From a virus: a DNA stretch of 34,159 bases. The notes under the pieces are model-generated. The model worked only from the letters and a program-made list of their open reading frames with translations. It ran no database searches and was not told the DNA's origin. The translations under genes and the position numbers were made by a program. The DNA lies in the IMG/VR virus record IMGVR_UViG_3300030107_001586, positions 1 to 34,159 of that record, one strand, 5' to 3'. Positions 14,979 through 20,540 of the stretch are shown piece by piece (the first letter of the stretch is position 1; every line of letters starts with the position of its first letter).

Positions 14979-15037
14979 GTGGGGCAAGGGGTTTTCCTGC
15001 AAACGTCATGTTGGATTTCGCTTTCCTCTTGCCTCAC
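14979..15037 (+). other. Long hairpin in the replication-region intergenic gap
   Basis: GTGGGGCAAGGGG (14979-14991) pairs with CCTCTTGCCTCAC (15025-15037) over 13 bp with two G-T wobbles and a 33-base loop. The loop can form a further small stem (TCC 14995-14997 with GGA 15013-15015). The element is GC-rich in an AT-rich genome and lies in a gene-free 215-bp stretch upstream of replication genes. The following sequence is A-rich rather than T-rich, so it is not an ordinary intrinsic terminator for the + strand. Replication origin, terminator variant or RNA element are all possible. Confidence 0.5.
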
Positions 15038-15049
15038 TATAAAATAAAA

Positions 15050-15147
15050 CTTAAAAAGGTAGTTACGGCTAAAACCACCATCCGTTAATATGCAAATTGA
15101 GATTGTTTACAACGAATTTGTCAAGCGTGGTCTACCTTTTATTTAAG
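15050..15147 (+). ncRNA. Structured RNA-like element with possible pseudoknot
   Basis: AAAAGGTAG (15054-15062) pairs with CTACCTTTT (15132-15140), extended by CTTA (15050-15053) with TAAG (15144-15147) across a 3-base bulge. Stacked inside are ACCAC (15074-15078) with GTGGT (15127-15131), and CAAATT (15093-15098) with AATTTG (15115-15120), capped by TTG/CAA. ACGG (15065-15068) can also pair with CCGT (15082-15085), across the ACCAC strand, which would make a pseudoknot. The outer stem covers part of the TAAGGAG ribosome binding site (15144-15150). Riboswitch-like control or a phage non-coding RNA are both plausible; no known class was recognised. Confidence 0.5.
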
Positions 15148-15189
15148 GAGTAAAAAATTAGTGGAAATTGAAGAAGGAGTTAAAATATC

Positions 15190-15300
15190 ATGGAAAAATG
15201 GTTAGATAAGTTTGAAAGATTTGTAGAAGTTTATTTAATAATAGCATCTACAATGTTAATAATTAGCTTTATTTATAATATAATAAAAAGGAGTATGTAG
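15190..15300 (+). CDS. 36-residue single-TM microprotein
   Basis: An ATG 7 bases after GGAGTTAAA opens a frame coding for MEKWLDKFERFVEVY and a hydrophobic helix (about residues 15-31) with a basic end. Its stop overlaps the GTG of the next gene, and the AAGGAG for that gene lies within its last codons, suggesting coupling. An alternative 14-codon frame from a GTG at 15161 behind TAAGGAG overlaps it and could be a leader peptide. Function unknown. Confidence 0.45.
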   Translation: MEKWLDKFERFVEVYLIIASTMLIISFIYNIIKRSM

Positions 15301-15815
15301 TGGAAAATAATAAAAAACCTAAGATTGAATTTCAACCAGGAAAAAAATATAAAATTCAATTAATCTTTGATGAGTGTAAATCGGGTAAGACAACAAAACC
15401 TGATGGTAAATCTTATAACTGGTATTTATACCAATGCAAATATGATTCAAATGAATATACATTTTTCGCAGATTATGATTTACATGATGAATTAAAAAAA
15501 TATGGTCGTGGAGATATTTTAGAAATTCAAGATAATTATGAGGGAGAGAATCCCTATGGACATGATTGGAATGTTATTTCAGTTGGGTTAGGTGGTTCAT
15601 TAGATAAAATTATGAAAGATGGCAAGAATAAGACTGAGATTAAAATTGAATTATTTGCCTGTATGAAAGTGGCATCATCATTTAGTAAATCATTAGACGA
15701 GTTAAAAGCTAATACTTATGTAGTGCAACAATTGCATAAAGAAATGGTTGATGAAGTAATTAATGAATCATCACAAGCGCAGGAAGTTGTAGATAAAGTA
15801 GAGGAATTGTTCTAA
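15300..15815 (+). CDS. OB-fold-like, possible ssDNA-binding protein
   Basis: This 171-residue protein uses a GTG start 7 bases after AAGGAG. Residues about 8-90 alternate beta strands in an OB-like pattern with several aromatic residues (KSYNWYLYQCKYDSNEYTFF), as in single-strand DNA-binding proteins. An alpha-helical, acidic C-terminus follows, ending VVDKVEELF. Acidic tips are common in SSBs that recruit partners. It directly precedes an HNH/NinG-like nuclease and a replication initiator-like gene, consistent with a replication or recombination role. The assignment is inference. Confidence 0.45.
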   Translation: MENNKKPKIEFQPGKKYKIQLIFDECKSGKTTKPDGKSYNWYLYQCKYDSNEYTFFADYDLHDELKKYGRGDILEIQDNYEGENPYGHDWNVISVGLGGSLDKIMKDGKNKTEIKIELFACMKVASSFSKSLDELKANTYVVQQLHKEMVDEVINESSQAQEVVDKVEELF

Positions 15816-17449: not shown

Positions 17450-17709
17450 GCAAAAACCAAGAATCTTTATTTGGAGATTTAGATGAATATTCATGGTGGA
17501 ATAAAGAATGGCAAGATATGCCTGAATATAAAATGTTAGACGAATCCCCATTTCAATCAATAAATATTCATTTTAAAACCGAAGAAGATAGAAATGAATT
17601 TGCTAAATTAGTAAATCAAACCATCACTCAACAAACTAAATATATTTGGTTTCCTAAAAAAGATGAGCTACCACCAAGATATTTTTTATATGTGGATGAA
17701 GAAGAATGA
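17446..17709 (+). CDS. Small protein preceding DNA glycosyltransferase gene
   Basis: This 87-residue acidic protein has a W-rich start (EYSWWNKEWQDMPEY), then FQSINIHFKTEEDRNEFAKL and the ending KYIWFPKKDE. From memory, similar modules occur beside or fused to ParB-like, methylase or base-modification proteins in phages. It overlaps both neighbours by 4 bases, which ties it to the glycosyltransferase gene downstream. A role in DNA modification or recognition is therefore suspected but not demonstrated. Confidence 0.5.
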   Translation: MSKNQESLFGDLDEYSWWNKEWQDMPEYKMLDESPFQSINIHFKTEEDRNEFAKLVNQTITQQTKYIWFPKKDELPPRYFLYVDEEE

Positions 17710-18566
17710 ATCCTAAATATCCAATATATATAATATCAAAAAATAGGTGGAAATATTGTGATGGTAATTTATCAACCTCACACGCTTTAGATTTAATAAA
17801 TGTTCCATATAGGATTGTAGTAGAACCTCATGAGTATAATGATTATAAAAAATATATTCATCCGAATAAAATATTAAAATTACCTTTTTCTAATTTAAAT
17901 AAAGGGAGTATTCCAGCTAGAAATTGGGTTTGGGAGCATTCAATAAAAGAGGGTCATAAAAGACATTGGATTATGGATGATAATATTCAGCATTTTTATA
18001 GATTAAATAGAAATAGGAGATTGCATATTAATAGTGGTACTATATTTAAATGTGCAGAAGATTTTGTAGATAGATATATAAATGTACCGATGGCAGGATT
18101 TAATTATAATACATTTGCTATTCCTAGAAAAAATCTTGCACCATTCTATCTTAATACTCGCGTTTATTCTTGTATATTATTATCAAATAATTTAAAGCAT
18201 AGGTGGCGAGGGAGATATAACGAAGATACAGATTTAAGTTTAAGAGTATTAAAAGATGGTAATTGTACTATCTTATTTAATGCATTTTTATGTGATAAAG
18301 TAAACACGATGAGAATGACTGGCGGTAATACAGATAAATTATATCAACAAAATGAATATCAAGACGGAAGAAAAAAGATGGCAGAATCGCTAGTTAAACA
18401 ACATCCCGATGTTGTTAGGATGGCTTGGAAGTGGGATAGGTGGACTCATTTCGTAGATTATAAGCAGTTCAAACTTAATAATAAGTTAATTAAAAAAGAT
18501 GGGGTAACTATTAAACAAGGCATTAATAATTATGGAATGAAATTAATACAACTGGAGAATATATGA
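17706..18566 (+). CDS. TET-associated (TAGT-type) glycosyltransferase
   Basis: The 286-residue protein has a GT-A-like layout: N-terminal IYIISKNRWKYC, PARNWVWEHS at 70-79, HWIMDDNI at 87-94 (Asp91-Asp92 in the place of the metal-binding DxD), a YNEDTDLSLR block at 171-180, and MTGGNT around 205-209. These are the signatures I recall for TAGT enzymes, predicted to transfer sugars onto hydroxymethylated or otherwise modified bases in phage DNA. The next gene encodes a sugar-nucleotide epimerase that could provide the donor. No TET/JBP oxygenase, hydroxymethylase or methylase is visible, so the acceptor is unknown. Confidence 0.7.
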   Translation: MNPKYPIYIISKNRWKYCDGNLSTSHALDLINVPYRIVVEPHEYNDYKKYIHPNKILKLPFSNLNKGSIPARNWVWEHSIKEGHKRHWIMDDNIQHFYRLNRNRRLHINSGTIFKCAEDFVDRYINVPMAGFNYNTFAIPRKNLAPFYLNTRVYSCILLSNNLKHRWRGRYNEDTDLSLRVLKDGNCTILFNAFLCDKVNTMRMTGGNTDKLYQQNEYQDGRKKMAESLVKQHPDVVRMAWKWDRWTHFVDYKQFKLNNKLIKKDGVTIKQGINNYGMKLIQLENI

Positions 18567-19420
18567 TTTTAGTAACAGGAGGAGCGGGATTTATTGGAAC
18601 TAATTTAATTGATAGACTGGTAAAAGATAAAGAAGGTGTAATATTGTTTGACAAAAAAATATCTAAAAGAACAGATGTAAATATTTTTAAAGGAGATTTG
18701 TCTAATGAAAAAGATATAAGTTTTTTTATTAAAAATTTTGGTCAGGTTGATACAATAATTCATTTAGGGGCGATAGCAAGGATTCACACATCTATGAAAG
18801 AGCCAAAAAAAGTATTATTAAATAATATAGTAAGTACAATTAATATTCTTGATTATGCAAAGGATTTTAATATCCCAGTTATATATGCTGGGTCTAGCTC
18901 AAAATTTGCAGGAGTAAATAAAAGCCCATATGCGTTTTCAAAGCACAAAGGCGAAGAATTATGCAAATTGTATAATAAAAACTATAATCTTAAAACTTAC
19001 ATTTGCAGATTTTATAATGTTTATGGTAAGCATCAAATTGAAAAAGGCAAATATTCAACTGTAATTGGAATATTTGAAAAACAATTTAGGGAAAATAAAC
19101 CATTAACAATTGTGGGAGATGGAACACAAATAAGAGATTTTACGCATATTGATGATATTGTAGATGGAATAATAAAAGCAAAAAATATGATTATAAATTC
19201 AAAAAAAACATATTTAGAATTTGATTTTGGAACTGGTGTTGAATATTCTATAAATGATATTGCTAATATGTTTGGTGCAGATTATCCTAAAAAATACTTA
19301 AAAAATAGAAAAGGCGAGTATGATTATTCATTAGCCGACAATAATTATACAAAAAATATTTTAAACTGGTCACCGAGGAAAAAACTAACAAATTATATAA
19401 AAAATACAATAAACCCTTAA
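18563..19420 (+). CDS. NAD-dependent sugar-nucleotide epimerase/dehydratase (extended SDR)
   Basis: The 285-residue enzyme starts with the Rossmann motif VTGGAGFIG (4-12) and has acidic residues for NAD ribose binding (Asp30). Ser112/Ser113 in AGSSSKFAG and the catalytic pair Tyr123/Lys127 in SPYAFSK follow, and RDFTHIDDIVDGII is the usual C-terminal substrate segment. It belongs to the GalE/WbpP-like family that interconverts or modifies UDP- or dTDP-sugars. It overlaps the glycosyltransferase gene by 4 bases, so it probably supplies its donor sugar; specificity cannot be read. It is the last gene before promoter copy 3. Confidence 0.8.
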   Translation: MILVTGGAGFIGTNLIDRLVKDKEGVILFDKKISKRTDVNIFKGDLSNEKDISFFIKNFGQVDTIIHLGAIARIHTSMKEPKKVLLNNIVSTINILDYAKDFNIPVIYAGSSSKFAGVNKSPYAFSKHKGEELCKLYNKNYNLKTYICRFYNVYGKHQIEKGKYSTVIGIFEKQFRENKPLTIVGDGTQIRDFTHIDDIVDGIIKAKNMIINSKKTYLEFDFGTGVEYSINDIANMFGADYPKKYLKNRKGEYDYSLADNNYTKNILNWSPRKKLTNYIKNTINP

Positions 19421-19449
19421 ATAACTCTTAAAATAAATTAATAAAAGAC

Positions 19450-19478
19450 TTGCCTCGTATTGATTTATTCCATATTTT
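19450..19478 (+). promoter_or_regulatory. Early promoter copy 3 with dyad box
   Basis: TTGCCT (19450-19455), 17-bp spacer, TATTTT (19473-19478). The GTGATTATCAATAA string that follows is identical in copy 2; its TGATTATCA dyad occupies 19486-19494, one base farther from the -10 than in the other two copies. Upstream ACTCTTAAAATAAA resembles copy 2. It drives the amidoligase gene, with AAGTGAGG as ribosome binding site before the ATG at 19521. Confidence 0.7.
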
Positions 19479-19520
19479 CTTGTTGTGATTATCAATAACA
19501 ACATAACAAGTGAGGAAAAA

Positions 19521-20540
19521 ATGCAAAAAGGTAAATTTAATAATAGTAGGGGTTTTGGAGTAGAAATTGAGTATATAAGACCAACAAGTGTTTCTAAGCA
19601 AGAGATATGTAATGCTCTAACATCAGTAACTTGTAGGGTTGAGGGATATAACCATAATACTGTTTCTTATTGGAAAATAGTTACAGATGCTTCTGTAAAA
19701 GCTAATCCATCATGCACATATGCTTCTGATTCTTATAATGGATATGTTGGAGATAATGAAATAGTATCTCCAATTCTTTATGGAGAAAATGGTTTTGAAC
19801 AATTAAAAGAAATATTAGATGTTCTTAATAACAAGGGATGTAAGGTTAATTATAGTTGTGGTATTCATGTTCATCACGATGTGACTAATAAGATGATTGA
19901 AGGTAAAGAGAAAAGCCAAAAGTTTTTAACTAATCTTATAAAGTTTGTTGCTAAGTATGAGCATTTAATTTATAAGTTGGTTTCTCCATCAAGATTGGAC
20001 AGTAGAAAATATAGCACACCTGTAAGAAGAGATTATTTTGATAGATATTGTAATATGAATAAAAGACAGATTAAGGAAATGATGACTAAGGTTAAAAGAG
20101 ATTGTACTAGAAAATATCGCAATGGTAGTGATATCGATAGAGGTCAAATATCTCCTCGCGTTCAATCTAATAGAGGTTGCGGTCTTAATCTTCGTAATGT
20201 TTGGACAAGAGGCTCAGTTGAGTTTAGGTATCATAATGGTTCTTTAAATTTTGATAAGATTGTTTCCTGGATTGTTTTTACTCAAGCGATTGTTAATACT
20301 GTTGAAGAAGCAAATAGTGTTCAAATGAACTATGTTCCAAGTGATGTTGATGGTCTTTTTTATCTAAGGAAAGCAATTGGTTTTGTTGGTAGCACAACTA
20401 GAGATGCTGTAACAGATATGGCTACTAATTATATTGTTAAAAGATATAAAGAGCTAAGTGCTAGAGAAAATGATTATCGCAGACAAGGCGATTATACTTA
20501 TGTAGATAGTGGTTTAACTTTAAATCAAGAAGGAGTTTAA
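19521..20540 (+). CDS. Amidoligase family protein (COOH-NH2 ligase)
   Basis: The 339-residue protein matches the phage/bacterial amidoligase family related to glutamine synthetase, predicted to join a carboxyl and an amine with ATP. Visible motifs are FGVEIEY (12-18, Glu15/Glu17), WKIVTDASV (51-59), NEIVSPIL (79-86), CGIHVHHD (113-120), GLNLRN (221-226) and SVEFRYHNG (232-240). The Glu and His residues would bind metal and ATP. I start at the ATG behind AAGTGAGG; a longer in-frame start at 19485 falls at the transcription start. The next two enzyme genes (GATase II and a cyclotransferase-like protein) match the gene company predicted for this family. Confidence 0.8.
   Translation: MQKGKFNNSRGFGVEIEYIRPTSVSKQEICNALTSVTCRVEGYNHNTVSYWKIVTDASVKANPSCTYASDSYNGYVGDNEIVSPILYGENGFEQLKEILDVLNNKGCKVNYSCGIHVHHDVTNKMIEGKEKSQKFLTNLIKFVAKYEHLIYKLVSPSRLDSRKYSTPVRRDYFDRYCNMNKRQIKEMMTKVKRDCTRKYRNGSDIDRGQISPRVQSNRGCGLNLRNVWTRGSVEFRYHNGSLNFDKIVSWIVFTQAIVNTVEEANSVQMNYVPSDVDGLFYLRKAIGFVGSTTRDAVTDMATNYIVKRYKELSARENDYRRQGDYTYVDSGLTLNQEGV

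What the first reader, a model, noticed from the sequence alone, without database searches (positions are those of the whole stretch)
15050..15147. Pseudoknot-capable RNA element sequestering a ribosome binding site
Nested pairing covers nearly the whole 98-base segment: a 13-bp outer stem with one bulge, an ACCAC/GTGGT stem stacked on it, and a CAAATT/AATTTG hairpin inside. ACGG can pair with CCGT across the ACCAC strand. The outer stem includes part of the TAAGGAG for the following frames. This is the architecture of a riboswitch or phage regulatory RNA, and no known class was recognised.
Basis: partly seen in the sequence, partly recalled or inferred. Interest (0 to 1): 0.72.

Follow-up and report, generated by a model that had tools for sequence, protein, structure and literature searches.

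The report
New pseudoknotted RNA in uncultured phages
A short, tightly folded RNA of about 50-100 bases, matching no catalogued RNA family, sits once per genome between genes in many uncultured phages; the folding suspected in this one sequence is real and is conserved by matched mutations, but what it does is still unknown.

Summary
The fold described is real and is not a one-off. A pattern search for its core found more than 70 copies in uncultured viral contigs, in 49 distinct genomic settings. All share P1 - UU - P2a - CUAAA - P3a - CAU - P2b - UAA(variable P4 hairpin)AGC - P3b - P1'. P2 (ACGG/CCGU) and P3 (ACCAC/GUGGU) form an H-type pseudoknot inside P1. On 25 distinct cores, 98% of pair cells are paired and 11 of 16 pairs show double-sided changes; the covariation score is 0.54, against 0.19 shuffled and at most 0.14 in slid controls. 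Homologous loci show direct compensatory swaps. The smallest natural form is about 50 nt.

No Rfam match was found, nor any in 85,000 prokaryote genomes (exact core) or cultured phages (blastn). It occurs once per record, between co-directional genes. In one group of 12 phages it always lies on the primase-helicase strand. The window's nearest relatives lack it.

Ribosome-site sequestration is not supported: P1 overlaps a Shine-Dalgarno site in 0 of 22 settings. Stop-codon readthrough is unlikely.

Best reading: a new class of cis-acting phage RNA, single-copy in early mRNAs. Self-cleavage is the likeliest single chemistry (about 0.33) but untested.

The parts
15054..15140 (+). Whole conserved element (P1 to P1')
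   Evidence: Covariance model R1 matches 15056-15138, 56.5 bits, E 1e-11; 73 descriptor-scan copies
15054..15062 (+). P1 5' strand AAAAGGTAG
   Evidence: Pairs with 15132-15140; 5 of 7 modelled P1 pairs change on both sides
15132..15140 (+). P1 3' strand CTACCTTTT
   Evidence: As above
15063..15064 (+). J1/2, UU, conserved
   Evidence: UU in all 30 distinct cores; not fixed by the pattern
15065..15068 (+). P2 5' strand ACGG
   Evidence: Variants CCGG, CTGG, GCGG, GTGG with matching partners
15082..15085 (+). P2 3' strand CCGT
   Evidence: As above
15069..15073 (+). L1 CUAAA
   Evidence: Present in all copies, but fixed by the search patterns, so its conservation is not measured
15074..15078 (+). 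P3 5' strand ACCAC (pseudoknot)
   Evidence: 4 of 5 pairs change on both sides, 100% of cells paired
15127..15131 (+). P3 3' strand GTGGT (pseudoknot)
   Evidence: As above
15079..15081 (+). L2 CAU
   Evidence: About 95% conserved
15086..15126 (+). L3: UAA ... variable P4 hairpin ... AGC
   Evidence: P4 stem 15092-15098/15115-15121 in the window; absent in L139, L166-L169, L178 and others
15050..15053 (+). Window extension of the outer stem (CTTA), pairing with TAAG 15144-15147
15143..15149 (+). TAAGGAG, a Shine-Dalgarno site partly in the window extension
   Evidence: Sequence; relatives keep TAGGAG here without the element
15190..15300 (+). 36-aa membrane-type ORF downstream, with its own SD AAGAAGGAG 15171-15178
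   Evidence: Sequence; homologous ORF in relatives

Best explanation
Window 15054-15140 is one member of a previously uncatalogued class of compact RNA (natural minimum about 50 nt): a closing stem P1 around an H-type pseudoknot (P2/P3), with an optional variable hairpin P4. It is transcribed within early, replication-side operons of uncultured phages and acts in cis on that mRNA. The mechanism judged most likely is self-cleavage, i.e. a small ribozyme that cuts the polycistronic early mRNA between two genes. Shown: the fold, its conservation, single copy per record, strand and location. Inferred: transcription, cis action. Not shown: cleavage and any cleavage site. The class claim alone stands at about 0.9; the score below is for the full statement with self-cleavage.
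For: Strong covariation in P1, P2 and pseudoknot P3, with compensatory swaps between homologous loci. Conserved bases cluster at the P1/P2/P3 junction, as in an active or binding site. Natural size near 50 nt with a dispensable hairpin. One copy per record, nearly always on the gene strand, between genes of unrelated function. In 12 of 12 related phages it is on the primase-helicase strand. Clean presence or absence at one locus. One carrier contig also has a pistol ribozyme. Size and covariation fit published expectations for ribozyme candidates (PMC10085705).
Against: No cleavage data. Pistol co-occurrence is 1 of 50 against 0 of 50, not an association. Ten motifs chosen on similar grounds did not cleave in vitro (PMC10085705). 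Placement near a start codon, and restriction to early operons, fit a regulator at least as well.
Confidence: 0.33

Rival explanations
1. A protein-binding RNA operator or transcription-control signal: the pseudoknot is read by a phage or host protein, or by RNA polymerase (as in HK022 put RNA), to time early and replication gene expression.
For: Single copy in the early, replication-side operon, upstream of the primase-helicase in 11 of 12 phages; an SSB gene directly upstream in the L178 family; often just before an RBS.
Against: No common adjacent gene or protein partner in all carriers; P1 never covers the SD (0 of 22); some copies lie next to non-coding DNA or a terminator-like hairpin (L166).
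Confidence: 0.3
2. An mRNA stabiliser or processing barrier: the P1-P3 helix blocks exonucleases or is a ribonuclease site, so that the genes on either side are expressed at different levels.
For: Sits between genes in operons; P1 of 6-17 bp predicted to stack on the 5-bp P3.
Against: A simple hairpin would do; it does not explain invariant loop bases or the conserved pseudoknot.
Confidence: 0.17
3. A riboswitch that senses a small molecule to control the next gene.
For: Compact pseudoknot with conserved junction bases; often 16-40 nt before a start codon.
Against: Neighbouring genes share no pathway; no SD capture; no terminator switch seen; one copy per genome in varied settings.
Confidence: 0.12
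4. A stop-codon readthrough or frameshift pseudoknot for the upstream gene.
For: The stop codon is often only a few nt upstream of P1.
Against: No phase preference between that stop and the element (16, 12, 11); conserved UAA triplets block two frames.
Confidence: 0.02

Closest known systems
Pistol ribozyme (Rfam RF02679)
   Same: Small phage-associated RNA with a pseudoknot from a hairpin loop, found between genes
   Different: Pistol has P1-P2-P3 with its knot between the P1 loop and the P2/P3 junction; here the knotted hairpin lies inside a closing stem and the variable hairpin falls between the knot strands; no Rfam match, and cleavage untested
Twister ribozyme (topology only, from memory)
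   Same: A hairpin loop pairs with the strand next to the closing stem P1
   Different: Twister needs nested P2/P4, a second pseudoknot and a conserved CCC/GGG contact; here one knot of variable sequence; no Rfam match
T4 gene 32 mRNA pseudoknot (from memory)
   Same: Phage mRNA pseudoknot in replication gene territory; an SSB gene lies next to it in one family here
   Different: Not tied to SSB genes across carriers; one class-wide consensus with a closing stem
HK022 put RNA (from memory)
   Same: Cis-acting structured RNA of phage early transcripts
   Different: put is two stem-loops without this pseudoknot; effect on termination untested here
preQ1 and SAM-II type pseudoknot riboswitches (from memory)
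   Same: Compact H-type pseudoknot close to start codons
   Different: No shared consensus (no Rfam match), no pathway association, no SD capture

Membership tests
Any Rfam 15 family (known ribozymes, riboswitches, phage RNAs) | Score above the family's gathering cut-off | tested here: not met
   No relevant match for the window, L028 or L139, even at E up to 5-10; the same library finds pistol in L016, a positive control
Self-cleaving ribozyme (function) | Site-specific cleavage of the isolated RNA | not testable with these tools
   No wet experiment or transcript-end data available
Self-cleaving ribozyme (function) | Compact, covarying structure with conserved unpaired bases, without a fixed gene partner | tested here: met
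Pistol ribozyme | Match to RF02679 and its helix order | tested here: not met
   Searches give no hit; in motif-bearing records RF02679 rings only at a separate locus, 9 kb away, in one record
Metabolite riboswitch | Consistent association with genes of one pathway | tested here: not met
   Diverse neighbours
Metabolite riboswitch | Ligand binding | not testable with these tools
   Needs probing experiments
   0 of 22 settings
Readthrough or frameshift pseudoknot | Fixed phase and spacing after the recoded stop or slippery site, with an open frame through | tested here: not met
   Phases 16/12/11

The most novel reading that the evidence does not exclude
A new structural class of natural self-cleaving ribozyme, built as one H-type pseudoknot inside a closing stem (about 50 nt), that processes the early or replication mRNA of uncultured phages once per genome.
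Probability: 0.3. Interest if true: 0.88.

Novelty: new variant of a known kind. Interest (0 to 1): 0.7.

Why it matters
A structured RNA class with strong covariation, single-copy early-gene placement and no entry in Rfam is a ready target. If it cleaves itself it adds to the few known natural ribozyme classes. If it binds a protein or ligand it exposes a control point of early gene expression in phages that nobody has yet grown. Either way the natural 50-nt minimal forms found here (L139, L167, L178) can be made and tested directly.

Tried and rejected
Thermodynamic significance of the single sequence: weak, z = -1.03. Rfam at strict and lax thresholds: nothing relevant. Two viral scans used mis-spaced patterns: one search gave nothing and one search gave almost only chance hits (L066 is the one real copy); the chance hits then served as negative-control contigs (no strong match). 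Host genomes: none with the core in 84,980 species, two patterns. Cultured phages: none by blastn with the window region and three other element regions, nor with the covariance model in four phage records related to carriers by one protein. HDV-like and twister permutations were considered by topology and dropped because the order of strands does not fit. Readthrough or frameshifting unlikely by phase. Ribosome-site capture rejected. Pistol co-occurrence is not a statistical association. Literature searches found no description of this motif; preprints and most subscription papers were not searchable.

Full report
The pairings it listed are all there. On folding energy alone they are ordinary: z = -1.03 for the 98-base segment, with 30 of 200 shuffles doing as well. 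One sequence could therefore not settle the question, and comparison was needed.

Relatives of the next large gene (15300-15815) were fetched: nine viral contigs, best-segment identity 75-90%. Aligning their upstream regions shows that none has the element. The sequence runs from the conserved hairpin 14979-15037 to the small ORF (four contigs carry other sequence there), and the window differs by what looks like a clean insertion at AAAACTT|TAAGGAG. A covariance model of the element, described below, finds nothing elsewhere in those nine records either. The element is thus a separable module, gained in this lineage or lost by its sisters.

An exact search of 2.9 million viral contigs for ACGGCTAAAACCACNNNCCGT returned 19 contigs. 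Eighteen of them carry, outside the searched stretch, the same surroundings: an AG-ending purine-rich stem strand, UU, then UAA or UAG, a variable hairpin, AAGC, GUGGU and a complementary stem strand; in one, L017, the contig ends inside the hairpin. The nineteenth (L014) is a chance match. Further patterns with the stems left free gave many more. A descriptor scan lists 73 copies, in 49 distinct settings by flanking sequence. The general form is P1 - UU(N) - P2a - CUAAA - P3a - CAU - P2b - UAA..AGC - P3b - P1'. P4 inside the last loop ranges from absent (UAAYCAGC, total about 50 nt; L139, L166-L169, L178) to about 100 nt (L012).

Covariation is strong and includes the pseudoknot. On 25 distinct 48-column cores (A2) with the knotted structure, 98.0% of cells pair and 11 of 16 pairs change on both sides. 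The covariation score is 0.540, against 0.186 +/- 0.019 for shuffles (0 of 500) and at most 0.144 for slid structures. By helix, P1 has 5 of 7 pairs with double changes, P2 2 of 4 and P3 4 of 5. Related sequences can inflate such counts, so homologous loci were checked. L016 and L030 share a 79% identical upstream protein and differ as ACCAC/GUGGU versus AUCUC/GAGAU. L178 and L177 share a 57% identical downstream exonuclease and differ as CCGG/CCGG with ACCUC/GAGGU versus CUGG/ACAG with ACCAA/UUGGU. These are changes at the same locus that keep the stems. Caution: most later patterns fixed AGTT and all fixed CTAAA, so conservation of L1 is not measured; AGUU, the UA after P2 and AGC were not fixed and still hold in nearly all its hits.

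Copy number and placement. The covariance model R1, scored over 50 whole viral records, finds one strong copy in each of 46 records; the four others, with long P4 loops, score weakly or fall below threshold. It finds none in 50 control records beyond a weak 26-base hit. The element nearly always lies on the strand of the neighbouring genes, often with the upstream stop a few nt before P1 and the next start codon 16-40 nt after P3. In twelve records of one phage group it is on the same strand as the primase-helicase in 12 of 12 and upstream of it in 11 of 12; it is on the strand opposite the portal/terminase block wherever that block is present. Neighbours in other carriers are DUF932, a gp2.5-like SSB with a Cas4-type exonuclease, a MoxR ATPase with a CobT-like protein, and a replication initiator. 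This is an early or replication-side placement with no single partner gene; that these genes are expressed early is inferred from their functions.

What it is not. No Rfam family matches the window, L028 or L139 extracts even at E of 5-10 beyond chance hits, while the same library finds a true pistol ribozyme in the carrier contig L016, which is a positive control. No exact core occurs in 84,980 prokaryote genomes, and blastn finds none in cultured phages. Ribosome-site sequestration fails as a class property: P1 overlaps a Shine-Dalgarno site in 0 of 22 settings, and the window's apparent overlap comes from a local 4-bp extension beyond a bulge. Readthrough or frameshifting is unlikely, as the upstream stop and the element show no phase preference (16, 12, 11).

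How it may work. The pairing predicts P3 stacked on P1 as one helix of 11 bp or more, with P2 and its two crossing loops packed at the junction where most invariant bases sit (A6-U43, G7-C42, U8, U9, A19-U41; numbering of A2). Such a junction can be a cleavage centre, a ligand site or a protein site. A size near 50 nt, a dispensable hairpin, a distribution seen only in viral contigs, no gene partner and clean gain or loss resemble the small phage ribozymes. Eckert, Weinberg and colleagues (PMC10085705) describe similar expectations of size and covariation for ribozyme candidates, but also report ten such candidates that did not cleave. I therefore put self-cleavage at about one in three, a protein-read operator or antitermination-type signal close behind, and a stabiliser or riboswitch lower. 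The claim that this is a real, new structured RNA class is much firmer (about 0.9) than any one mechanism.

Verdict. Observation confirmed. Interpretation partly supported: a regulatory-type phage RNA, yes; a ribosome-site-sequestering riboswitch, no. New class, function open, and directly testable with the natural 50-nt minimal forms.

Noticed in passing
window 14979-15037: Another hairpin directly after the HTH_39 stop, conserved in most of the window's relatives (for example L002, L006, L007, L008, L010), whose long stem changes sequence while staying paired; no Rfam match. A second candidate RNA.
   Followed up: partly
L016 3979-4043: A pistol ribozyme (62.5 bits) on the same strand as, and about 9 kb upstream of, the new element in the same contig.
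   Followed up: partly
L237 875-4779, L027 1524-5127, L023 9951-13167: ThiS-like, JAB-like and ThiF-like genes clustered beside the element in a group of roughly 50-kb viral records: a possible ubiquitin-like conjugation set in phages.
   Followed up: no
window 17706-20540: TET-associated glycosyltransferase, sugar epimerase and amidoligase genes in a row: possible DNA hypermodification or capsule-related set.
   Followed up: no
window 15145-15167 and 15174-15196: A 23-nt duplication (78% identical) giving two Shine-Dalgarno sites, the first leading to a 14-codon GTG frame, the second to the 36-aa ORF.
   Followed up: partly
L182 7688-7768 (- strand): A compact tmRNA match (60.5 bits) with a tRNA-Met near it in a phage contig.
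   Followed up: no
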